Below are positions 36,751 through 47,598 of a stretch of DNA of 64,000 nt, piece by piece. The stretch lies in NCBI RefSeq assembly GCF_902859645.1, contig NZ_CADIJR010000011.1, forward strand, positions 57,309 to 121,308, written 5' to 3'. The translations under genes were made by a program, and so were the position numbers. The notes beneath the pieces were generated by a model. The model was given only the letters and a program-made list of their open reading frames with translations. It was not told the origin of the DNA and made no database searches. The stretch's first letter is position 1; each line of letters begins with the position of its first letter. Source of the stretch: Achromobacter insuavis. Its GTDB lineage: Bacteria; Pseudomonadota; Gammaproteobacteria; Burkholderiales; Burkholderiaceae_B.

Positions 36751-38343
36751 ATGCACCAGCGCATCCTCATTCTCGACTACGGTTCGCAAGTCACCCAACT
36801 GATCGCCCGCCGCGTCCGCGAAGCCGGCGTCTACTCCGAAGTGCATCCCGGCGACGTCGACGATGCCTTCATCCGCGACCAGATGGCGCAGGGCCTGAAG
36901 GGCATCATCCTGTCCGGCAGCCACGCATCGGCCTACGAAGAAGGCTCCATGCGCGTGCCGCACGCCGTGTTCGAGCTGGGCGTGCCCGTGCTGGGCATCT
37001 GTTATGGCATGCAGTCCATGGCGCAACAGCTGGGCGGCGTGGTCAGCTTCTCCGACCACCGCGAATTCGGCTACGCCGAAGTCCGCGCCCACGGCCACAC
37101 CAAGCTGCTGGAAGGCCTGGAAGACTTCGCCACCGCCGAAGGCCACGGCATGCTCAAGGTCTGGATGAGCCACGGCGACAAGGTCACCGAGCTGCCCCCG
37201 GGCTTCAAGCTGATGGCCTCCACGCCGTCCTGCCCCATCGCCGGCATGGCCGACGAAGAGCGCCGCTTCTACGCCGTGCAGTTCCACCCCGAAGTCACGC
37301 ACACCGTGCAAGGCAAGGCCATGCTGGCCCGCTTCGTCAACGAGATCTGCGAATGCCAGGGCGACTGGAACATGCCCGACTACGTCGCCGAAGCCGTCGC
37401 CCGCATCCGCGAGCAGGTCGGTGAAGACGAAGTCATCCTCGGCCTGTCCGGCGGCGTCGACTCGTCGGTGGCCGCGGCCCTGATCCACAAGGCCATCGGC
37501 GACCAGCTGACCTGCGTCTTCGTCGACCACGGCCTCTTGCGCCTGGACGAAGGCAAGCAGGTCATGCAGACCTTCGCCGAGAACATGGGCGTCAAGATCA
37601 TCCACGTCGACGCCACCGCCCAGTTCATGGGCAAGCTGTCCGGCGTGGCCGACCCCGAAGCCAAGCGCAAGATCATCGGCCGCGAATTCGTCGAAGTGTT
37701 CCAGGAACAAGCCGGCAAGCAGAAGAGCGCCAAGTGGCTGGCCCAGGGCACCATCTACCCCGACGTCATCGAATCGGCCGGCGCCAAGACCGGCAAGGCC
37801 ACCTCGATCAAGTCGCACCACAACGTCGGCGGCCTGCCGGACACGTTGAACCTGCAGCTGCTGGAACCCCTGCGCGAACTGTTCAAGGACGAAGTCCGCG
37901 AACTCGGCGTGGCCCTCGGCCTGCCGCCGCAGATGGTCTACCGCCATCCGTTCCCGGGCCCGGGCCTGGGCGTGCGCATCCTGGGCGAAGTCAAGCACGA
38001 GTACGCCGAGCTGCTGCGCCGCGCGGATGCGATCTTCATCGAAGAACTGCGCAATACCAAGGACGAGGCCAGCGGCCTGACCTGGTACGAGCTGACCTCG
38101 CAAGCCTTTGCCGTGTTCCTGCCGGTGAAGTCGGTGGGGGTGATGGGGGATGGCCGTACGTATGAATACGTCGTGGCCCTGCGTGCTGTGCAGACGTTTG
38201 ACTTCATGACGGCTGATTGGGCGCCGTTGCCGCATCCGTTGCTGGCTCGGGTTTCCTCGCGGATTATTAATGAAGTGCGGGGGATCAACCGGGTGGTGTA
38301 TGACGTGTCGAGCAAGCCGCCTGCGACGATTGAGTGGGAGTGA
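36751..38343 (+). CDS. guaA: GMP synthase (glutamine-hydrolysing)
   Basis: 530 residues. Amidates XMP to GMP with ATP and glutamine. Class I amidotransferase domain (1-~195): [20 protein letters not shown], catalytic Cys84 in [17 protein letters not shown], and His/Glu in [16 protein letters not shown]-pyrophosphatase domain: PP-loop [19 protein letters not shown], then YPDVIESAG and [10 protein letters not shown]; dimerisation domain with [19 protein letters not shown], and the C-terminal end KPPATIEWE. The gene's 3' end is a known integration site for genomic islands, consistent with accessory genes downstream, although no integrase is present here. Confidence 0.97.
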
Positions 38344-38361
38344 TCCCGCGTCGCTCTGCGA

Positions 38362-38405
38362 ACGGTAAATGAAAAAGGCGCTTCGGCGCCTTTTTCATTT
38401 ACCGT
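38362..38405 (+). terminator. Rho-independent terminator after guaA
   Basis: A perfect 20-bp stem (38362-38381 with 38386-38405) capped by the stable TTCG tetraloop. The G/C core is flanked by A-run and T-run, so it works in both directions. Very strong. Confidence 0.92.
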
Positions 38406-38605
38406 GCTTTCCGACGGAGGGCTACCCGGCCGTCACCAATCCAGGCTGTAGCTTACCGCTGTCGTCGTCACCAAACGGCAGGAGGCTGCGTTCACGCGCT
38501 TGTTGGATGCGGTCGGGAGCGAGCAGCTGGTCGCGCAGGAAACCTTGGCAACTACACTAATGCCCAAACGGCTCGAATCCAATCCATGCTGCTCGAGGGG
38601 GAGTA

Positions 38606-39214
38606 ATGCAGGCAAAAGACGCACGTGCCAGATGGCAGGCAGAGCAGTTGCAATTGGCCGGAAGGCATCTTCTCGACGCCGCCAAGTCCATGAGGATGGG
38701 TCCTATGCCGGAATCGCCGTTCGGACGCACTGATGAGGGCTTTGAGGACTATCGAGGCATTACGCTCGCTGAAGCGGTCCGCTACCTGAGCATCGAAAGG
38801 GTCGATCTCTCCGACGCCGTGTTCAAGGACGGGGCCAGCATCAATGAGTCCGAGGCAAAGGGATGCAAGTTTGAGCGCATCGATATGCGTAACGTGTTTG
38901 TGCGAAGGAAATTCGATTCGTGCGGCTTTGTCGGCGCGAAGCTCAATGGGGCGCGGTTGGGCGGGGAATTCATTGGCTGTGACTTCTCGCGTTCGAATCT
39001 ATCCAGGTCCTTTGCGACGGACTGCAAGTTCGTTGATTGCAAATTTGCCGGGGCAAATCTCTCGGGCATTCATTTCATCAGTTGTGTATTCGATGGGTGT
39101 GACTTCACGGGAGTGAAGGTCATGTCTGGATCAGTTGCGAGGAGCAGGTTTGTGGGCGGTATTGCCCTGGAGCAGCTGCAAGGCTGTATCACGGATGGGG
39201 TCGTGATTCGTTAG
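38606..39214 (+). CDS. pentapeptide-repeat protein
   Basis: 202 residues from the ATG at 38606, with GAGGGGGAG upstream. After a helical N-terminus (DARARWQAEQLQLAGRHLLD) pentapeptide units run from ~75 to ~190: VDLSDAVFKDGAS, CKFERIDMRN, FVGAKLNGARLGG, CDFSRSNLSRS, CKFVDCKFAGANLSGIHF, CVFDGCDFTGVKV. The fold is a right-handed quadrilateral beta-helix. Such proteins bind partners, some protect DNA gyrase. No cargo domain; function unknown. Upstream (38406-38605) is non-coding apart from weak fragments. Confidence 0.8.
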   Translation: MQAKDARARWQAEQLQLAGRHLLDAAKSMRMGPMPESPFGRTDEGFEDYRGITLAEAVRYLSIERVDLSDAVFKDGASINESEAKGCKFERIDMRNVFVRRKFDSCGFVGAKLNGARLGGEFIGCDFSRSNLSRSFATDCKFVDCKFAGANLSGIHFISCVFDGCDFTGVKVMSGSVARSRFVGGIALEQLQGCITDGVVIR

Positions 39215-39247
39215 GGCCAAACGCCCCAGCGGGGCCGTCACCCCTGC

Positions 39248-39808
39248 TTATTGCATCAGCCGGGCCAACTCAGTCAATGCCCGTTCGACGTCGGAAGCAA
39301 ATTCTGCGAAATCCGTGGTCGGATTCAAGGGGCCGTCATGCCGGATAACCTCGTCCGACAGGGTGATCGCCGGTGCTGTCGTGACAACACGCATCTTCAA
39401 TGCCTCGGCTACCTGTCGCAGTTGATTGGCGCATTTGGTTCCGCCGTGTCCTCCGTATGTCACGATGGCCGTTGGCTTCGTCCGCCATTCGTCATAGAGG
39501 TGATCGATCGCGTTCTTTAGCGCGGCGGGGTAGCCCCAGTTGTACTGCGGTGTGACAAAGACCACGGCGTCGCAGGCTGAGATTTTCTCGCTCCATGCGT
39601 GCGTGTGGGGCTGGGCATACGGTGCGCCCAGGGCAGGCAATCCCGGCTCGTCGTCCATGGGCAGGTGCCAGGCTTTCAGGTCTACGATCTCGTAGGTCGA
39701 GTCCGTGCAAGTCCCGCCAATATCGGCGACCCATTGTGCGATCCTGGGGCAATTTCTTCCTGCCCGTGTGCTGCCCATGATAACGAGCACCAATGTTGAT
39801 TGGCTCAT
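39248..39808 (-). CDS. NADPH-dependent FMN reductase family protein
   Basis: 186 residues. Flavodoxin-like: VLVIMGSTRAGRNCPRIAQW (FMN phosphate site), VVFVTPQYNWGYPAALKNAIDHLYDEW (the family's YNxxxPxxLKNAIDxL motif), and AIVTYGGHGGTKCANQLRQV. These enzymes reduce FMN, quinones or azo dyes using NAD(P)H. It is just upstream, on the same strand, of nothing intact: only the remnant of an MFS gene lies beyond its start. Confidence 0.88.
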   Translation of the reverse strand: MSQSTLVLVIMGSTRAGRNCPRIAQWVADIGGTCTDSTYEIVDLKAWHLPMDDEPGLPALGAPYAQPHTHAWSEKISACDAVVFVTPQYNWGYPAALKNAIDHLYDEWRTKPTAIVTYGGHGGTKCANQLRQVAEALKMRVVTTAPAITLSDEVIRHDGPLNPTTDFAEFASDVERALTELARLMQ

Positions 39809-39818
39809 CGCTTATCCC

Positions 39819-40040
39819 CTAGTTTGTTGAAGTCAACTTCGTTGCGGACCGTGCCGGTGCCATCAACGGAACGAAGCACAGTGCCGATAGCCCGACTGCG
39901 GCCATGAAGACGAAAGCGTCGGCATAAGCGAGCGTTTTGGCTTGCTGTGCAGCCGTTTGTGCGAGTAGCGCTTCGGCCATGCTACGCGCTTGCGTGGCTT
40001 GCGCCCCTCGCTGAATAAGTGCAGCGGTCACGGACGTCAT
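39819..40040 (-). pseudogene. C-terminal remnant of an EmrB-type MFS transporter
   Basis: 73 residues that resemble only the end of a 14-TM DHA2/EmrB drug pump: TAALIQRGAQATQARSMAEALL, then QQAKTLAYADAFVFMAAVGLSALCFVPLMAP, the last TM helix. An in-frame TAG is 2 codons upstream of the first ATG, and no further transporter sequence is found beyond it. So it is a leftover of a deleted gene, truncated where the next accessory segment begins. Confidence 0.65.
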
Positions 40041-40055
40041 CTGGCCCTAACCGCG

Positions 40056-40081
40056 AATTTGTCCAGGATCTCCGACAAATT
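40056..40081. repeat. inverted repeat, possible operator
   Basis: Perfect 8-bp arms AATTTGTC / GACAAATT separated by 10 bp, the geometry of a TetR-type operator. It lies next to the broken end of the MFS pump remnant and may be left from its former control region. Confidence 0.45.
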
Positions 40082-40142
40082 TAGAGAACCACTTCGAAGA
40101 CATGACCATGAGTCCTGCGATCCGAAATCGCAGTGGGTCCCT

Positions 40143-40871
40143 TTAACCCCGCGGGCTTGGGATGCCCGTTGATTGCAGACCTTTGATGACCCTCAGCGCC
40201 GACGATAAGGCATAGTGTTGTTGTGAGAAGTCATATGAGCGGCCGCCATCAACGGAAAGATTCAAATAATATCCGCGCTGATGCACGTCAGGGACTTTGA
40301 CGCTCATGGAAAATGAATCCCCAATCATCGCGGGATAACGAGAGAAGAACTCCCCGATTCGCGCACGAACCTTGGGGCCGATTCTGACCTCAGGATCAAG
40401 CAACGATTCCACTTCGATTTGGAACAGTTCAACGCCCGCTCGCACGAGGGCGTCCATATGCGAAGCTCTGTCCAGCAGCGAAAGATCGTCCTTGAGCAAG
40501 AAAAGTCCGTTGGCAATTTTGCCCACATCCAGTCTCGACAGCGCATCCAGCTGCGCCAGGCTCAATTCGGTTTTTTCCGGATCCACAACCGTGAACTCCA
40601 GATAGCGAGGCTTCAACTCTGCAATGATCTGCCTGCAAAACCCAATGTCATCGACGCCGCCAACCGGATGGACGGCATGCGCGCAATCGAGCACGCTGCC
40701 GAGGCGCCTGCACTGATCCAGGTCCAGCGCGCTCGCGCAGGATGAACGCGCCACGACAAAGCCTGCGATGTCGATCGAACCCAGTTTTTCAGCCTCGGAA
40801 ATCGACCTTATTTGATTGACTTTTATCACTTCCACCTCTGCCAGATCGGCCATAGCCATGTCGATGTTCAA
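40143..40871 (-). CDS. hypothetical protein, 242 aa, third gene of an unrecognised cassette
   Basis: Start is a TTG at 40871, overlapping the TGA of the 54-residue gene; ATGs at 40859 and 40853 are alternatives. The sequence is soluble and mixed alpha/beta: DLAEVEVIKVNQIRSISEAE, DIAGFVVARSSCASALDLDQ, LKPRYLEFTVVDPEKTELSL, FSRYPAMIGDSFSMSVKVPD, YYLNLSVDGGRSYDFSQQHY. No family recognised. Context with a secreted protein and a tiny protein suggests a three-part unit. Confidence 0.6.
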   Translation of the reverse strand: MNIDMAMADLAEVEVIKVNQIRSISEAEKLGSIDIAGFVVARSSCASALDLDQCRRLGSVLDCAHAVHPVGGVDDIGFCRQIIAELKPRYLEFTVVDPEKTELSLAQLDALSRLDVGKIANGLFLLKDDLSLLDRASHMDALVRAGVELFQIEVESLLDPEVRIGPKVRARIGEFFSRYPAMIGDSFSMSVKVPDVHQRGYYLNLSVDGGRSYDFSQQHYALSSALRVIKGLQSTGIPSPRG

Positions 40872-41032
40872 TCCCGCCAACCTATCGATGCCGCCTCTCG
40901 CTTGAGCGCAGCCATGAATGACGAAACATCGAGGCCCTTGAATTCATACTTGTTCAAGGACGCTTCAACATAGTCGAAGAAATGGCTGGCCACGATGGAT
41001 CTCTGCTGCGCCTCGCTGTATCCGCCTGGCAA
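40868..41032 (-). CDS. hypothetical 54-residue protein
   Basis: Short frame beginning with TTG at 41032, with CAGGA 7 bp upstream, and ending in a TGA that overlaps the next gene. Product: MPGGYSEAQQRSIVASHFFD, YVEASLNKYEFKGLDVSSFM, AALKREAASIGWRD. It is well behaved as a small helical protein and fills the gap exactly (12 bp after the previous stop). It is also in frame with that previous gene, separated by its TAG, so a single longer protein interrupted by one nonsense codon is the alternative. Confidence 0.5.
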   Translation of the reverse strand: MPGGYSEAQQRSIVASHFFDYVEASLNKYEFKGLDVSSFMAALKREAASIGWRD

Positions 41033-41044
41033 CTGGGCGTCCTG

Positions 41045-41674
41045 CTATTTGAACTGGATCCCTTTGATAGCCAGCATGGGTGAAAGCAGGCACGTGAACG
41101 TGACTGCGGCAAGGTCCGGTCCTGACGACTTGTAGAAAGCCGTGCCCTCTACCGCGATGTCGTATCGTTCCGCTTTCGTTCCCGCGATCGAGGCGCCTGA
41201 GCGATAGCGAGGGCCATCAATGCCAATTTCCACAACCGTGGAGTAAACGCTATGGTCGAAATCGGGACGGTTGATCTTCGCGGGGGCGGCATCCACGCAA
41301 ACCTTGGCCGCCATTGACTGGCCTTTGGGCGTATTGATTCCCGGTTTGAACTGTTGCGGACGAATCAAACGCCAATTGTTGCCCTCGGGGCTATATGAGG
41401 CAGGTTCGTACTTCCCGGTGCCTTTGCGAAGATAGCATTCGACCAGTTGCGGACTGATTCCATCTATTGCGATGAAAGTTGAATCTGGATTGAATGAGCG
41501 CGCGCTCTTGAGGTAGCGGGAGTCAATTTCAAACGGCACCGTCTTGCCGTTGGCGCGGGATGCGCAAAGCTCCTCTTTTTGTGGGTCATTGCCAATAGCA
41601 TCGTTCCGTATCATCTCGGCTTGGGCAAGGCATGAAAAAAACAGCAATCCAAAACCCAGTGGCAACCAGCGCAT
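41045..41674 (-). CDS. secreted hypothetical protein, 209 aa, first gene of cassette
   Basis: ATG at 41674. Signal peptide (MRWLPLGFGLLFFSCLAQAE). Mature protein has four or more Cys (ELCASRANG, VECYLRKGTG, AKVCVDAAP, FTCLLSPML) and is mostly beta. A Bacteria-wide family is not recognised. Stop TAG at 41045; the frame continues without other stops to 40868, see the 54-residue gene. Base composition is somewhat less G/C-biased than in housekeeping neighbours. Confidence 0.65.
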   Translation of the reverse strand: MRWLPLGFGLLFFSCLAQAEMIRNDAIGNDPQKEELCASRANGKTVPFEIDSRYLKSARSFNPDSTFIAIDGISPQLVECYLRKGTGKYEPASYSPEGNNWRLIRPQQFKPGINTPKGQSMAAKVCVDAAPAKINRPDFDHSVYSTVVEIGIDGPRYRSGASIAGTKAERYDIAVEGTAFYKSSGPDLAAVTFTCLLSPMLAIKGIQFK

Positions 41675-42204
41675 TCAATGTCTCCAGGTTGATCCGCACG
41701 ACGTGGGATTGGGCGAAAATACTATAGCTATTTCAAACTTCAATCAATTCGTTTGATATTGCAGTGCCTGCGCCGCCATGGGAGCTGTTGTCCCCGCGCC
41801 GTAGTAACCCGTTCGCCGAACGGGATAGCAAGCGGGGTCTTTTCTTCATCGGCCTATCCGTGATCTTCAGCTCTCATGACATGCCTCGCATGCAAAATCC
41901 CGGACAGGCCCTGAAAAGGCGCGGTTTTGGCACGATCTTCGACCACACCGCCACGTCGCCCTCGGGGCGTTTACATCAGTTAATGACTCGGTACAGAACG
42001 CAAGAGTCATGGGTCGGAACAGCCCGCCCCTTGCGGTACGATCTTCGCTCCTACCGCGTCCCCCTTTTGCGATACAGCCTTTCGAGCTATCACGGGCGCT
42101 GCCAAAAGCAGCTGTCGTTCCTTCGAAGGCCAACGCTTTGTCGTTCAACGGCAAGCCTGGTATCCATCCCCACGCTGAACAAATCACGAAAACGGAGAAA
42201 CCGA
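41675..42204. other. 530-bp non-coding region with structured element
   Basis: Divergent control region between the cassette (minus) and the secreted-protein gene at 42205 (+). It contains a nested hairpin at 41792-41837. Open frames here give no plausible protein and read as low-complexity, so I treat it as a leader or regulatory region. Confidence 0.4.
41792..41837 (+). repeat. nested hairpin in long leader
   Basis: Outer arms CCCCGC / GCGGGG enclose a perfect inner stem CCCGTTC-gcc-GAACGGG (41808-41824); the run TCTTTTCTT follows on the + strand. It may be a terminator of a short leader RNA or an attenuator for the gene at 42205. It does not match a riboswitch I know. Confidence 0.4.
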
Positions 42205-43341
42205 ATGCACGTAAAGGTTCTTGCACTGTGTTTGATGACAGGCTTCGCCACTTCCGCCGCGGCCCAAGACAGCACCCAAACCCTGCAACAAGCCTTGAAG
42301 CAGATTCCCCAGGTCGTCCTCTCCGCGCCGGCGGCGATGCAGGTGCTTTTCCTGGACGTGCAAGCCTGGCGATCGCTGGAAAAAACCGGCCCTTCCGCGG
42401 ACGGCATGCGCCGCCTGTCCATTGCGCAACCGATCCGTCCGCTCGAATCCATCGGGTTTGGCCTGGAGCCGTGGTCGGCCAACGCCAAGGTCCCGTTCGA
42501 CGAGGTCTCCTATTTCGCCGGATTTGGCCAGGCGCCCTCGAATATCAGCTATTGGGGATTGAAGGACAAGAAGGCCGTCGGGACATTGGTTGCCAGCCTG
42601 AAGCAGGGCGATTTCGCCGCGGTCGACGGCGATGCGCCGGGCCTCATCGCCAATGATGGCGAAGGCAAGATGAACATGCAGAAGGCCAATCAGAAGGATC
42701 CCTGGCGCGGCATGATGGGCAAGGCCAGCTTTGTGCTGCCGCTCGATACCGCGTTGATCCAGGCGTCGTCGGCAACGGGCATGAAGATACTGGCCCAGCC
42801 TGCGCCGTCGGTGGCGGATAGCGAAGTCGTGGCCGCCTCGCTTGCCGGCCTGAAGGAGGGCGTGCCCGGGGACCGAGGCCGGATCGTGCAGGCCGCGGTC
42901 ATCTCGCCCATCATGGGTCTGGCCGCCGTGGATCCCGCGAAGGTGTTGTTGTCGACCAATGGCGATGCGGATATCGCCAAGCAGAATCTCAAGGCCGCCG
43001 TCGAGGCGAATGGCCGGGGCATTCCGCCTTATTTCTCGGGGGTTCTGGCCGATGCCCAGATCAACAATCTGCCCGCGATCGTGATTTCCCTGGCTTACGC
43101 CGATTGCGCCACGGCCAAGCAGGCCGTGGATGGGGTCAGCGCCGCCTGGAAGGAAAGCATGGCTGGTGCGAAGGATGCCAAGGTTGCCGGCACGACGGTC
43201 CAGGCCGGCAAGCTGTGCGCAGCGGTGGTGAGAGTGACTGCGCCGAAGGCGGAGAACGCCGGCAATCCGGTGCTGGCCGAGGTGATGAATCGCTATATGC
43301 GGCGCGAATTCACCGTCCTGCAGATTGGCGCGGCGCGCTGA
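42205..43341 (+). CDS. secreted hypothetical protein, 378 aa
   Basis: ATG at 42205, ACGGAG upstream. Signal peptide (MHVKVLALCLMTGFATSAAA). The mature protein is Ala-rich, alpha/beta: TLQQALKQIPQVVLSAPAAM, VLFLDVQAWRSLEKTGPSAD, FDEVSYFAGFGQAPSNISYW, GLIANDGEGKMNMQKAN, and INNLPAIVISLAYADCATAK. Only two or three Cys. No known domain recognised; a periplasmic protein with a two-lobed fold is possible. It ends before a strong bidirectional terminator and probably is monocistronic. Confidence 0.7.
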   Translation: MHVKVLALCLMTGFATSAAAQDSTQTLQQALKQIPQVVLSAPAAMQVLFLDVQAWRSLEKTGPSADGMRRLSIAQPIRPLESIGFGLEPWSANAKVPFDEVSYFAGFGQAPSNISYWGLKDKKAVGTLVASLKQGDFAAVDGDAPGLIANDGEGKMNMQKANQKDPWRGMMGKASFVLPLDTALIQASSATGMKILAQPAPSVADSEVVAASLAGLKEGVPGDRGRIVQAAVISPIMGLAAVDPAKVLLSTNGDADIAKQNLKAAVEANGRGIPPYFSGVLADAQINNLPAIVISLAYADCATAKQAVDGVSAAWKESMAGAKDAKVAGTTVQAGKLCAAVVRVTAPKAENAGNPVLAEVMNRYMRREFTVLQIGAAR

Positions 43342-43414
43342 GCAAGGTCGCGGTAGACAGGCGGTCTGATGGTGATTGGGGCGCTTAGCTCCGCGGTCAG
43401 ATCAACGGGAGTTG

Positions 43415-43442
43415 AAAAAAAGGCGCGAAAGCGCCTTTTTTT
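43415..43442. terminator. bidirectional Rho-independent terminator
   Basis: Stem AAAAAAAGGCGC-gaaa-GCGCCTTTTTTT. It serves the + strand gene ending at 43341 and the minus-strand helicase gene ending at 43529. Confidence 0.85.
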
Positions 43443-43528
43443 GATAGTGGGAAAGGTGGTTAACACGATTCCGATTCCGCTGGCGGTGCTGGTATTGAAG
43501 GAGGATTGGTTCGCCCGCCAGAGCGAAG

Positions 43529-45943
43529 TTAGTCGCTATCCAGCACGGTCAACATCTCCGCGATAATGTTGAACCCATCGAACTCAGCGTTCCGCTCAAT
43601 CACGATCGGTTCGTATCCGGGATGAGAGGAATCCGGGCGCAGCGTGATTCGCTCATGCCGCCAAGAGCCATCCTCGTTAACCACTTTTTCGCTCGAATAG
43701 ACCTTGATCGTGTACCGTCCGCCGGTCTCGGGATCATCGATGCCACGGTGTTCGGCGATGACGACCTTACCTTGTCGTGTTCCGCCTGGATTGGCGCGGA
43801 ACAGACACCAGGAACCGTTCGGAATGCGCTGGTTCATCGATTCGCCGATGACCTGGGCGACGAACAATCCGGGTTGCGGGGCGACCCAATCGGGCAGCTC
43901 CAACCACTGGGTTGCCGAGTTTTCGAACGCTTGTACATCAGAGAACTTGCCTGCGGCCATTCGCAAATCGACTAGCGGAATGGCGGGAACACCGGATGTT
44001 CGCTCTTCGTCGGTGACTCGACGTAGCGGAATGACGTTGCCGATTACCTGCTGAGTCTCGTCATGCCGTGCTGATTCGATGATCGCTCGTACTCTGCTGC
44101 GTAGATACTCGGCCAAGGGTCGATCGGTGCAATAGACGAAGCAGCCTTTCATACCGCGCGTCATGAGCGTGCGATAGGTGTTCTTGACCACAAGATCTGC
44201 TAGTCCCTGCGCTTCATGCGGATTCTCGCGCATCATCTTTTTCAGTCCACGCACGGATTGATCGGAGGAGGCCCGCTTGTTGGCATCGATGACGACGCGG
44301 CCATTTCGATATGCCAGGTCATCACCGATGATCACGCCGACATAGTCAAGTTCCAGCCCCTGGCAGGTATGGATGCAGCCGACTTGCTCGACGGACCGGG
44401 GCTTCATGATCCAGAGGCCGCCGTCTTCTGTGAGGTTCCAGCGCCTGTGATAGTCAAATTCCGGGATTTGGATGTCCCAGGCTTCGGGCTTTTTCTTACT
44501 CGGCCAGGGCCAGCAGTATCCGGCTACAACGCGAGATCGATTGTTCGCCCTGTTCTTCTGTTCGATCAGCGCATGCATCTCGCAGGGATCATCGAATACG
44601 CGAAAGTCGTATTCACTCTGGTCGATAGTGACGTTGGCCGTTGGACGGATCTCCAGCGTGTTATCCAACCACGCGAGGTAGCCTTCCGAACCATTGCAGC
44701 GGAACTGTGACGTCAGGGCGAGTTCCGTAATCTCGGCTCCCTGCGTCTTGGCATGATGTCTTAATTCATCGGAATGGCCGACATCGTATATGGTCACGCG
44801 CTGATCATCGTCGGTGAAGAATACCGCACAGCGTGCGGACCGAATGATCTCCATGACCTGGTGCTCACCTTCGTTGCGGTACAGGCCGCTTTTCTCGTTC
44901 AGCCGATGTGATTCATCCACGATGAGCACATCGTAGGTATCGGCATCGCTGTTCATGAAAGCGCCGGAACCGCTGAAGAGATTGCCTATGCGTGTCTTGG
45001 TGAAGGTGCCGGTCAATTTGGCCTGAAGCACTTCGCGCGGAGCGCGGTTTTTTGATACATAGCGAGCATTGCGCTGGCGGCTGATGAACTCGGCCAGCAG
45101 ATTGACGGCCAGCACGGATTTCCCTGTTCCCGGGCCGCCCTGGACGATGATGACCTGCTTTTTTTCCTTGGCCTTTGCTTCAATCTGCAGGATGGTTTCG
45201 TAGACCACTTTCTGGTCGTCGATGAGTATGAACTCTTGCTTGCCCTGCATGATGTTGGCTACGTAGTCCATCAAACTCTTCGATGGTTTGATGTGGCCGT
45301 TCTCAATTGCATAGAGCGACTTCAGCCGATCGCCGCGACGCACGTGGGTGCTGATGAAACGACTGAGCTTGTCTTTATCGCTCTTGAGGAACAGGGGGGC
45401 CCGCTCGATGTACGGTTTGTAGTCGGGATGATCGATTTGGCCATCGCTCGGATGGTTGTGCAGGTAGGCGCAGGGCAGCAAATGCATGCCGCCCTTGTGT
45501 ACGGCGGTGTTGAGATCCTCCAGCCGGGCGGCATACGACCAAGCCTGGTAAGAGGGATGCGGACCTTCCACTTCGCGTGTCTGGCCTCCGCGTCGGGCCC
45601 AGATGACGCCATCCTTCCCTCCATGACGGGAACTGGACCACTGTTTTAATTCGATGATGACGACTTTGGGTTGTCCGTGATCATCCTCACCGGTCACCAT
45701 GAAGTCGATACGTTGGGAGCTGTTGGGCAGTTGATACTCGATCGCCACGCCTGCCTCATCGGGGATCTCGTCGTCCTGCAGCACCTTGGCCATTTCGAAC
45801 AACGAGTTCCGCCACGACCGGACTTCGCTGGCTCCGCCGCCATTGGCGCCGGCGTGACGCACGTGGCGAAGCATGATGTCCTCTATGTCTTCACGCAACG
45901 CATGTTGAAGGAATTCGGTCTTGCTGGCTTGGTAGATGATCAC
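43529..45943 (-). CDS. PD-(D/E)XK nuclease / Schlafen-group-3 helicase / S24 peptidase-like fusion protein
   Basis: 804 residues from the GTG at 45943 (MIIYQASKTEFLQ). Residues ~60-100 carry RIDFM (Asp80) and VVIIELKQW (Glu98, Lys100), a PD-(D/E)XK nuclease core. A DUF2075/SLFN-g3 helicase follows: Walker A VQGGPGTGKSVLAV (268-281), Walker B VLIVDESHRL, VFFTDDDQRV, signature LTSQFRCNGSEGYLAWL, motif V HTCQGLELDYVGVIIGDDL, motif VI YRTLMTRGMKGCFVY. The last ~130 residues look like an S24/LexA domain: VAQVIGESMNQRIPNG (Ser702) and RYTIKVYSSEKV (Lys747). It probably cleaves and unwinds nucleic acid in phage defence or SOS-linked repair; inferred. Pairs with the MazG-like gene 22 bp upstream. Confidence 0.82.
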   Translation of the reverse strand: MIIYQASKTEFLQHALREDIEDIMLRHVRHAGANGGGASEVRSWRNSLFEMAKVLQDDEIPDEAGVAIEYQLPNSSQRIDFMVTGEDDHGQPKVVIIELKQWSSSRHGGKDGVIWARRGGQTREVEGPHPSYQAWSYAARLEDLNTAVHKGGMHLLPCAYLHNHPSDGQIDHPDYKPYIERAPLFLKSDKDKLSRFISTHVRRGDRLKSLYAIENGHIKPSKSLMDYVANIMQGKQEFILIDDQKVVYETILQIEAKAKEKKQVIIVQGGPGTGKSVLAVNLLAEFISRQRNARYVSKNRAPREVLQAKLTGTFTKTRIGNLFSGSGAFMNSDADTYDVLIVDESHRLNEKSGLYRNEGEHQVMEIIRSARCAVFFTDDDQRVTIYDVGHSDELRHHAKTQGAEITELALTSQFRCNGSEGYLAWLDNTLEIRPTANVTIDQSEYDFRVFDDPCEMHALIEQKNRANNRSRVVAGYCWPWPSKKKPEAWDIQIPEFDYHRRWNLTEDGGLWIMKPRSVEQVGCIHTCQGLELDYVGVIIGDDLAYRNGRVVIDANKRASSDQSVRGLKKMMRENPHEAQGLADLVVKNTYRTLMTRGMKGCFVYCTDRPLAEYLRSRVRAIIESARHDETQQVIGNVIPLRRVTDEERTSGVPAIPLVDLRMAAGKFSDVQAFENSATQWLELPDWVAPQPGLFVAQVIGESMNQRIPNGSWCLFRANPGGTRQGKVVIAEHRGIDDPETGGRYTIKVYSSEKVVNEDGSWRHERITLRPDSSHPGYEPIVIERNAEFDGFNIIAEMLTVLDSD

Positions 45944-45965
45944 GTCTATGCCTGTGTCACATCGA

Positions 45966-46316
45966 TCAAAGCTGGTCGTATTTCTTGTTGCTGCCTTTGG
46001 CGCGCTCGACAGGGTACTTCTGCGCATTCAACTTGATCTTGGCCTGCGCTGCCTTGATCGGGTCGATGCCAAGCACGTTGCTCAATTGAACGAGATAGAG
46101 CAGGACATCCGCAATTTCAGCACCGACGGCATCGAGTTTCTCCGGGGCAAGGTTTCGGCTTTCAGCTTCGGTCATCCATTGAAAGTGCTCGAGCAGTTCG
46201 CCAGTCTCCACGATGAGGGCCGAGGCCAGGTTCTTGGGAGAATGAAATTGTTCCCACTCCCGCTCGTGCGCAAATTTGCGTTGCTGCTGGGCGAGGTCTC
46301 GAAGCGAATCTGTCAT
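45966..46316 (-). CDS. MazG-like nucleotide pyrophosphohydrolase
   Basis: 116 residues from the ATG at 46316 (MTDSLRDLAQQQRKFAHERE). All-alpha NTP-PPase: ALIVETGELLEHFQW supplies the first ExxE pair and GAEIADVLLYLVQLSNVLGI the ExxD pair that bind Mg; the pattern ends in AQAKIKLNAQKYPVERAKGS, as in dCTPase/RS21-C6 proteins. These hydrolyse dNTPs to dNMPs plus PPi, sometimes non-canonical ones. The stop is 22 bp before the helicase-nuclease start, so the two make one transcript. Nucleotide depletion together with a nuclease would fit an anti-phage role. Confidence 0.88.
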   Translation of the reverse strand: MTDSLRDLAQQQRKFAHEREWEQFHSPKNLASALIVETGELLEHFQWMTEAESRNLAPEKLDAVGAEIADVLLYLVQLSNVLGIDPIKAAQAKIKLNAQKYPVERAKGSNKKYDQL

Positions 46317-46392
46317 GGTGCGTTGGCTGGGAAAATGACCCGATATGACATCGCGGACCAGCGCGATCCCATATCGGTATGCAGGTGGCATT

Positions 46393-46587
46393 GTGAATAA
46401 GCGGATCTGCGATAAGTGCTATCTCACCGGAGAAAAAGGCTTGGCGATAGCCGTTAACTCAAGTGATGATGAGGAATACCGCGAAATCCGCTGCACTCGC
46501 CAGTATATCCAACGTCACTATGGCTTCGTGTTGCGAGCGCTCGATCCTATGCTGGCTCTGTGCCGGCTAGTCCGACGACTGCATTGA
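46393..46587 (+). CDS. possible small protein, 64 aa
   Basis: GTG at 46393 with AGGTGG just upstream; divergent from the MazG-like gene, starts 77 bp apart. Sequence MNKRICDKCYLTGEKGLAIA, VNSSDDEEYREIRCTRQYIQ, RHYGFVLRALDPMLALCRLV, ending in RRLH. A CxxC pair near the start could bind zinc. Weak evidence. Confidence 0.35.
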   Translation: MNKRICDKCYLTGEKGLAIAVNSSDDEEYREIRCTRQYIQRHYGFVLRALDPMLALCRLVRRLH

Positions 46588-46614
46588 TTGGATTGTTGGC
46601 GAGTCGTGGCCGGG

Positions 46615-47598
46615 TTATTTCGTCAAACGCCCGGCCAATTCCCCCACCGCAATCGCAATCTTCCCCCGCAGCCCATTATTCGCGCTCTCCAGCCGCGCAT
46701 GCGCCGCCGGAATATCGGCAAGCGAATACACCGCGCCCACGTGCGGCCGCAACTGGCCACGTTCCACCAAGGCGCTCAGCTCATCCAGCTTGCCGCGATT
46801 CTGTCGCGTGAACACGAAGTGGAAGCTGGCGTTCTTGCCCCACGCCTGGATCAGGTTCTGCGGCTGGGCGATATCGACAATCGAGACCACGCGCCCCAGC
46901 TGCGCCAGCACGTCGGGGCTGCGCGATAGCGTGTTGCCGCCTATGGTGTCGAACACCACGTCGACGCCGCGCCCGCCGGTCTCGCGCAGGATCGCGTCGA
47001 CATAGTCTTCCTTTTCGTAGTCGATGGTGACGTCGGCGCCCAGGCCGCGCACGAATTCGGCATTGTCGTCGCGTACCGTGGTGAAGACCCGGGCGCCGAT
47101 GGCCTTGGCGAGCTGGATCGCCACATGGCCGACGCCGCCGGCGCCGCCATGCACCAGGATGCTCTCGCCGACGCGCAGTCCGGCGCGCACGACCAGGGCT
47201 TCCCACGCCGTGCCGCCGACCAGGGTCAGGCTGGCCGCTTCCAGATGGCTGAGCGAGGCCGGTTTCTTGCCGACGATACTCTCGGCGGCCACGTGGTATT
47301 CGGCGTAGCTGCCGGGGCCGTCGAAGATCTGCGGGGTGTACCAGACTTCATCGCCGGGCGCGAAGGCGGTCACGCCCGGTCCGACGGCTTCGACCACGCC
47401 GGAGACGTCGTGGCCGGTGATGGCGGGCAGGGGCACCAGGTCGGGGTAGTCGCCCCGGCGGACCTGATAGTCGAGCGGGTTGATGGAGGTCGCGTGGACA
47501 CGGACCAGGACCTGGCCCGGTTGCGGAGCGGGCTTGGGGACGTCGTGCAGTTCAAAGGATTCAGGGCCGCCGAAGGCGGTGAGTACGAGGGCTTTCAT
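46615..47598 (-). CDS. zinc-type MDR oxidoreductase (quinone reductase-like)
   Basis: 327 residues. Medium-chain dehydrogenase: [52 protein letters not shown], and NADPH motif [19 protein letters not shown]. The catalytic-zinc Cys/His set is absent, as in the quinone oxidoreductase (QOR) branch. It reduces quinones or enones using NADPH. A 22-bp operator-like palindrome is 29 bp upstream of its ATG and repeats in front of the ArsR gene, so ArsR should repress it. Confidence 0.88.

What the first reader, a model, noticed from the sequence alone, without database searches (positions are those of the whole stretch)
43529..46316. MazG-like pyrophosphohydrolase plus nuclease-helicase-S24 fusion: candidate defence system
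Seen: a two-gene unit in which an 804-residue protein joins a PD-(D/E)XK core, a Schlafen-group-3 helicase with all motifs, and a C-terminal Ser/Lys pair laid out like LexA/UmuD peptidases. Known: SLFN helicases and MazG enzymes are both found in defence islands, and S24 domains self-cleave when RecA filaments form. Inference: DNA damage or phage entry would trigger self-cleavage and free the nuclease-helicase, while the partner depletes nucleotides. I know of no described system with the S24 domain at the end of this helicase.
Basis: partly seen in the sequence, partly recalled or inferred. Interest (0 to 1): 0.82.

Follow-up and report, generated by a model that had tools for sequence, protein, structure and literature searches.

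The report
Self-cleaving tail on DNA-cutting enzymes
A small mobile two-gene unit pairs a nucleotide-hydrolysing enzyme with a DNA-cutting motor whose tail looks able to cut itself off as the DNA-damage sensor LexA does, and the same kind of tail sits on other DNA-cutting defence enzymes, which suggests a shared damage-triggered switch.

Summary
A MazG-like gene (45966-46316, -) lies 22 bases upstream of an 804-residue gene (43529-45943, -): PD-(D/E)XK-like nuclease, Schlafen-group-3 helicase, C-terminal Peptidase_S24. (2) The pair is a ~3.3 kb insertion; three relatives show the empty site. (3) MazG adjoins 65 of 80 homologues, and also tail-less and GIY-YIG-like helicase-S24 forms, so MazG + nuclease-helicase is the core and the tail optional. 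(4) The same tail clade is fused to HsdR-like, BPTD_3080, type III Res-like and HNH nucleases, apart from LexA/UmuD/HTH regulators in a tree.

My reading: an accessory DNA-targeting, probably anti-phage, system with a portable self-cleavage switch. No SOS box enrichment was found. Cleavage, RecA dependence and defence are untested; the tail-only fold did not finish. My paper searches found no description.

The parts
45966..46316 (-). MazG-like NTP pyrophosphohydrolase gene, 116 aa (in-frame ATG 46391 would give 141 aa)
   Evidence: PF12643 E 1.1e-14, PF03819 E 1.9e-5; metal ligands E62, E65, E92, D95 (numbering of the 141-aa frame) conserved in 81, 80, 81, 81 of 81 MazG rows taken from the homologous loci
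43529..45943 (-). nuclease-helicase-S24 gene, 804 aa, GTG start, stop included
   Evidence: relatives; AlphaFold2 model mean pLDDT 83.7, pTM 0.71
45344..45943 (-). residues 1-200, PD-(D/E)XK-like nuclease region; D80, E98, K100, Q101 invariant
   Evidence: NERD PF08378 E 8e-4, below cut-off; 60 of 60 conservation
44114..45181 (-). residues 255-610, Schlafen-group-3 SF1 helicase
43979..44113 (-). residues 611-655, poorly conserved linker
   Evidence: mean top-residue fraction 0.37 for 612-655 against 0.63-0.71 for nuclease, helicase and tail
43529..43978 (-). residues 656-804, LexA/UmuD-like Peptidase_S24 tail
   Evidence: PF00717 38 of 38 tails; LexA chains by profile, E 0.004-0.008
43949..43954 (-). 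predicted self-cleavage site A664|G665
   Evidence: A663 60/60, A664 57/60, G665 60/60; the profile aligns it with the VAAGE stretch of LexA; loop 662-671 has pLDDT under 50
43838..43840 (-). Ser702, predicted nucleophile
   Evidence: 88 of 89, 60 of 60
43703..43705 (-). Lys747, predicted general base
   Evidence: 89 of 89, 60 of 60
43344..46631 (.). segment absent from the empty sites of three relatives (36-56 other bases instead); this pair is its only recognised gene content
   Evidence: L118, L119, L120

Best explanation
A mobile two-gene accessory system, probably anti-phage. The nuclease-helicase engages and cuts DNA (inferred from domains); the MazG-like partner hydrolyses nucleoside triphosphates, either phage-related or damaged ones (inferred). 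The C-terminal S24 tail cleaves its own chain at A664|G665 when RecA-ssDNA filaments form (site and Ser/Lys shown by conservation; cleavage and RecA dependence inferred). I think it more likely than not that cleavage is a safety OFF switch: it exposes a ...AA carboxyl end like that of cleaved LexA, so ClpXP-type proteases destroy the nuclease-helicase when the host's own DNA is damaged, a built-in form of restriction alleviation. The same tail would do this job on other DNA-cutting defence enzymes (HsdR-like, BPTD_3080, type III Res-like, HNH).
For: Domains; invariant cleavage site and dyad, with Ala or Cys before Gly (LexA and UmuD layouts recalled), aligned to LexA by profile; flexible loop at the site. 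MazG adjacency 65 of 80, also with tail-less and GIY-YIG-like forms. Accessory insertion with empty sites in 3 of 9 regions fetched; 9 of 398 genomes of the phylum match at E 1e-30 or better. Same tail on HsdR-like proteins (one in an HsdM-HsdS-AAA-HsdR row), BPTD_3080-like endonucleases (one with a DNA methylase gene about 1 kb upstream), a Res-like protein and an HNH protein. Tails form one clade (100/99) apart from 10 LexA/UmuD/HTH rows, and tail and helicase trees disagree. OFF direction: restriction subunits should be ready at phage entry (inference); LexA and LexA-like proteins carry ClpXP C-degrons at the cleavage site (PMC5742171, passages); HsdR of EcoKI is removed by ClpXP in restriction alleviation (PMC4231737, outline and abstract).
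Against: Nothing shows cleavage or RecA dependence. Tail-less relatives are natural genes with MazG, so removing the tail alone need not inactivate. Three Bacteroidota rows have Cys before Gly, so the new end would be -AC, not -AA. P2 Ala is not special to repressors: 7 of 10 distinct ordinary S24 sites that I judged genuine have it, among them the 5 that I took for LexA. The Res-like viral tail lacks the Gly. No SOS box enrichment. Nearby defence genes were tallied without a control. One LexA-like protein is reported as an exception to RecA control (PMC7101444, search listing only).
Confidence: 0.4

Rival explanations
1. ON switch: the tail holds the nuclease-helicase inactive; RecA-stimulated self-cleavage during infection or DNA damage releases an active 1-664 fragment, as UmuD is turned into UmuD'.
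For: Cleavage product would resemble the tail-less forms (618-642 aa apart from a 669-aa frame, 11 examined) that occur by themselves, mostly beside MazG; UmuD precedent (general knowledge); Cys-Gly variants.
Against: The same tail on restriction subunits in methylase-bearing systems would leave restriction off until damage; tail-less forms are evidently tolerated without this brake; -AA end resembles a degron.
Confidence: 0.3
2. The tail is an S24-fold docking or dimerisation module (binding RecA filaments or a partner) and cleavage is incidental or absent.
For: Cleavage Gly is lost in the Res-like tail; S24 domains dimerise (general knowledge).
Against: A663, G665, S702 and K747 are 60 of 60, among 17 invariant positions of the 146-residue tail; the site also stands in GIY-YIG-like, HsdR-like, BPTD_3080-like and HNH hosts.
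Confidence: 0.15
3. The pair is a DNA-repair or housekeeping module rather than defence: a helicase-nuclease that clears damaged intermediates and a nucleotide-pool cleaner, tied to DNA damage by the S24 tail.
For: MazG enzymes are pool cleaners and S24 is a DNA-damage module (general knowledge); no phage data.
Against: Patchy presence, empty sites, and (mostly tail-less) copies on plasmids, phage records and viral contigs; tail shared with restriction enzymes; neighbours include GajA, AbiEi and SoFic matches (no control).
Confidence: 0.15

Closest known systems
LexA / UmuD / S24 repressors (Peptidase_S24, PF00717)
   Same: Ser/Lys dyad, Ala(Cys)-Gly cleavage site 37 residues before the Ser, flexible cleavage loop, LexA found by profile
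   Different: No DNA-binding repressor domain; fused to a nuclease-helicase; tails form their own clade apart from the 10 regulators tested
Schlafen group 3 helicases (PF09848, formerly DUF2075)
   Same: Full-length match; helicase resembles human SLFN11/SLFN14 and UvrD
   Different: No SLFN AlbA_2 RNase core; PD-(D/E)XK-like or GIY-YIG-like at the N-terminus, S24 at the C-terminus
AbiO / Nhi / PADLOC PDC-S41
   Same: Partial helicase similarity (E 5.9e-15, 9.7e-14, 6.8e-19)
   Different: Best stretches cover only 183-209 residues of this protein, none of them in the S24 tail; the MazG protein matched no PADLOC model
Type I restriction HsdR under restriction alleviation
   Same: Helicase-nuclease that would be disarmed proteolytically when host DNA is at risk; two HsdR-like proteins carry the same tail
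   Different: EcoKI uses ClpXP on translocating HsdR with an unidentified degron (PMC4231737); here a cleavable tail would create one; no methylase or specificity gene in the inserted segment
MazG predicted as a defence domain (DefensePredictor, PMC13092281, section 8 read)
   Same: MazG pyrophosphohydrolase highlighted as an unvalidated predicted defence domain
   Different: The text read does not name this nuclease-helicase partner or an S24 tail; its figure was not available

Membership tests
Self-cleaving S24 (LexA/UmuD) peptidases | Peptidase_S24 profile over cut-off | tested here: met
   26.1 bits whole protein, 31.5 tail, cut-off 23.3
Self-cleaving S24 (LexA/UmuD) peptidases | Catalytic Ser and Lys | tested here: met
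   S702 88/89, K747 89/89; both 60/60
Self-cleaving S24 (LexA/UmuD) peptidases | Ala/Cys-Gly scissile bond upstream of the Ser in a flexible loop | tested here: met
   A664|G665, 37 before S702; loop pLDDT under 50
Self-cleaving S24 (LexA/UmuD) peptidases | S24 fold of the tail | tested here: inconclusive
   full-length model is beta-rich there, but the fold search barely covered it; tail-only job unfinished
Self-cleaving S24 (LexA/UmuD) peptidases | RecA-stimulated self-cleavage | not testable with these tools
   needs biochemistry
LexA-type repressor | N-terminal DNA-binding (HTH) domain | tested here: not met
   N-terminus is nuclease and helicase; no HTH among the 25 of 26 families shown
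Schlafen group 3 helicase | PF09848 match with Walker motifs | tested here: met
   E 3.4e-106; K275, D343, E344 60/60
Schlafen proper | SLFN core (AlbA_2) RNase domain | tested here: not met
   not among the 25 families shown of 26 at E up to 1
MazG-like NTP pyrophosphohydrolase | MazG profile and ExxE...ExxD metal ligands | tested here: met
   PF12643, PF03819 over cut-off; ligands 80-81 of 81
Type I/III restriction-modification | Cognate methylase (and specificity) gene beside the nuclease | tested here: not met
   no methylase-like gene recognised in the inserted segment; the frames there are this pair and overlapping or short frames, judged by eye
Known PADLOC defence system | Full-length match to a system protein | tested here: inconclusive
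   only partial helicase matches
Anti-phage defence system | Protection against phage | not testable with these tools
   context only: accessory, mobile, some defence genes nearby in relatives

The most novel reading that the evidence does not exclude
A portable LexA-type self-cleaving tail, distinct from the LexA/UmuD regulators, has been moved by domain shuffling onto several unrelated DNA-cutting defence enzymes (PD-(D/E)XK- and GIY-YIG-like Schlafen-group-3 helicases, HsdR, BPTD_3080 and type III Res-like enzymes, HNH), wiring bacterial immunity directly and post-translationally to RecA-sensed DNA damage as a general safety catch or trigger.
Probability: 0.5. Interest if true: 0.92.

Novelty: new variant of a known kind. 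Interest (0 to 1): 0.82.

Why it matters
How hosts stop DNA-cutting immunity from destroying their own damaged or unmodified DNA is an open problem; EcoKI's alleviation degron was looked for and not found (PMC4231737, abstract). A LexA-like tail that can cut itself off would be a simple, directly testable answer, and would link immunity to the SOS state without transcription. If cleavage instead activates, it is a damage-triggered immune effector. One mutant (Ser702 or Gly665) decides between them. The MazG + nuclease-helicase pair is itself a widespread candidate system for which my searches found no description.

Tried and rejected
Chance frame or misread motif: rejected by conservation. SOS transcription: CTGT-N8-ACAG scan of 80 upstream regions (window and 79 loci) gave no enrichment over base-shuffled sequence (no exact site, 0.6 expected; 4 with one mismatch, 9.5 expected; window best has 3 mismatches). 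E. coli copy: no match in the E. coli collection (5,426 genomes) by distant blastn. Solved structures by single sequence: only weak matches, E 0.6 or more. Fold search with the full model filled up with helicases, so it says nothing on the tail; no S24 row appeared in it, which is not evidence against. Tail in annotated records: the window tail found one plasmid (Halomonas); a Bacteroidales tail found that plasmid and two weak XRE regulators, and no phage record; the window tail alone was not run against phages. Defence-island test: 108 neighbour proteins (picked from 199, from 50 of 80 loci, leaving out near-duplicate loci and doubtful frames) matched 98 PADLOC models at E 1e-20 or better, but the tool gives counts per model only (2 members each in the 25 models shown) and I ran no control, so I give it little weight. 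One free 176-aa tail (G581, its frame open at the end of the stored stretch) and a 142-aa frame with a stop (G819) were not followed; G1000 (350 aa) and G1068 (510 aa, one stop) were not examined, and G940, G1046, G1013, G839 and G857 were judged Schlafen type from frame length alone. Paper searches found no description; preprints outside PMC and most subscription papers are not held.
Full report

The tail. I aligned 89 tails: the window, 79 of the 80 loci kept by the genome scan (L049 is cut short), and nine from other loci; at least one genome is counted twice (L025 = L036). A663 is kept in 88, A664 in 84, G665 in 87, S702 in 88 and K747 in 89. In the 60-row alignment (window and 59 of the 80 loci, chosen by me) the counts are 60, 57, 60, 60, 60; the four invariant ones are among 17 invariant tail positions. 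The three exceptions at 664 there are Cys, in Bacteroidota rows L102, L110, L115. Ala or Cys before Gly, some 35 residues before a Ser and followed by a Lys, is the layout of LexA and UmuD (general knowledge). My pattern picked 10 distinct plausible sites from 30 loci of ordinary S24 proteins of relatives: five that I take for LexA with VAA|G, one more VAA|G, and LAA|G, VPA|G, LSA|G, VRA|G; the other hits in that listing were spurious. The profile aligns the site with the VAAGE stretch of LexA chains in the PDB (E 0.004-0.008), and residues 662-671 are a low-confidence loop in the model. The linker before the tail is poorly conserved (0.37 against 0.63-0.71). So a working self-cleavage site is very likely; cleavage itself is not shown.

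The pair. MazG lies within 300 bases in 65 of 80: 50 upstream, 14 downstream on the same strand (mostly Halomonas-like, 96-108 bases) and 1 downstream on the other strand. Of the 15 without it, at least L064 and L068 begin within 350 bases of the end of the stored stretch. MazG also stands by tail-less forms (archaeon L023, Marivirga L019, which is broken into several frames, Microcystis phage L021, L029, L130, L131, L132, viral contig L137) and by GIY-YIG-like helicase-S24 forms (L031-L034, L133, L134). It lies about 1 kb off at L035 and L141, on the other strand at L139 and L142, and was not found at L020, L022, L136 and L138, nor at L140, which is cut 121 bases upstream. The GIY-YIG matches are all under Pfam's cut-off (19.0-22.2 bits against 22.6), so that nuclease name is likely but not certain. 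The core is thus MazG plus nuclease-helicase; the N-terminal nuclease differs between lineages and the tail is optional.

Mobility. Of nine relative regions fetched for the flanking gene, three (L118, L119, L120) have both flanks together with 36-56 bases in place of window 43344-46631. The other six did not show both immediate flanks joined; in one of them, G008, the pair lies about 13 kb from that flanking gene, still on the guaA side. Hits in relatives: 14 of 101 genomes, the window's own included and two of them only weak. At E 1e-30, 9 of 398 genomes of the phylum, own included. The genome belongs with Achromobacter: G008, of the same genus, has a contig C8 of the same length as an A. deleyi contig.

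The tail on other enzymes. Searching with the tail alone gave 9 of 369 (class draw, E 1e-10), 5 of 398 (phylum draw, E 1e-15) and 10 of 295 (order draw, E 1e-15) genomes, 21 distinct. Five of these carry it on other proteins: HsdR-like in G805 and G678 (HSDR_N, T1R_D3-like over cut-off; TIGR00348 190 bits, under its cut-off of 284.55), one of them in an HsdM-HsdS-AAA-HsdR row; BPTD_3080-like restriction endonuclease in G858 and G890 (E 1e-171 or better, but 589 and 575 bits, under the cut-off of 800), one with a DNA methylase gene about 1 kb upstream; and an HNH protein in G798. A viral contig has it on a ResIII protein, with the cleavage Gly lost. In a tree of 58 tails the nuclease tails are one side of a branch (100/99) against ten LexA/UmuD/HTH rows, with long branches among the latter and a warning from the program about them. 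The GIY-YIG-like tails, joined by the HNH tail, lie on a short branch among the PD tails (0.37), whereas their helicases are separated by a long branch (4.92; they match the helicase profile only weakly, so its length is rough), and tailed and tail-less PD forms are interleaved (6 changes, at least 2 forced by well-supported branches). I read this as the tail having moved as a module; I ran no formal test of the disagreement.

How it may work. Shown: architecture, conserved site and dyad, pairing, mobility, tail on several hosts. Inferred: DNA cutting, defence, RecA trigger, direction of the switch. For OFF: restriction subunits ought to be ready at entry; cleavage would leave ...AA, and LexA-like proteins carry ClpXP C-degrons at this very place (PMC5742171, passages); EcoKI HsdR is removed by ClpXP in alleviation (PMC4231737, abstract and outline). 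For ON: the product resembles natural tail-less forms, and UmuD is a precedent. Against OFF: -AC ends in three Bacteroidota rows, and P2 Ala is common in ordinary S24 proteins (7 of 10 sites). I put about 0.55 on OFF against ON, given that the tail cleaves. No SOS box enrichment was found, so any damage link would be post-translational.

Literature. Searches for DUF2075/MazG/Schlafen/S24/HsdR combinations found no description of the pair or the tail. DefensePredictor (PMC13092281, section 8 read) lists MazG as an unvalidated predicted defence domain. The BREX survey (PMC12839542, passages) mentions Schlafen RNases, not this helicase, in the passages seen. These statements are limited to that library.

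Noticed in passing
window 38343-46632: The stretch between guaA (36751-38343) and the quinone-oxidoreductase gene (46615-47598) differs between relatives; in G008 the same pair sits in another slot of the same interval.
   Followed up: partly
L018:7920-10390: In the unannotated Halomonas sp. PA16-9 plasmid copy, nuclease-helicase and S24 tail lie in two overlapping frames: a frameshift or a natural split.
   Followed up: no
L058, L060, L061, L063, L070, L071, L074-L076, L082, L083, L094, L095, L100: In this mostly Halomonas-like group the MazG gene is downstream of the nuclease-helicase, 96-108 bases away, instead of upstream.
   Followed up: partly
L021:5657-7863: Microcystis phage Mwe-JY31 carries a tail-less copy of the pair.
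   Followed up: no
L195:2277-5435: Viral-contig type III Res-like protein has the S24 tail with Ser and Lys but no Ala-Gly at the cleavage site: possibly a non-cleavable version.
   Followed up: no
L160:6280-8902: The HNH-S24 gene abuts a frame that looks like an IS30-type transposase (from memory, no call); its N-terminus may be disturbed.
   Followed up: no
L159:265-1932: A Schlafen AlbA_2 / HATPase_c_4 / Fic-like_C protein is encoded directly upstream of an HsdR-S24 gene.
   Followed up: no
L051:12618-13166: A second MazG-like frame, 59% identical to the window's, lies about 4 kb downstream of the pair.
   Followed up: no
window 43413-43443: Short GC hairpin between A and T runs just past the end of the operon, terminator-like; read by eye, not in the list.
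   Followed up: no
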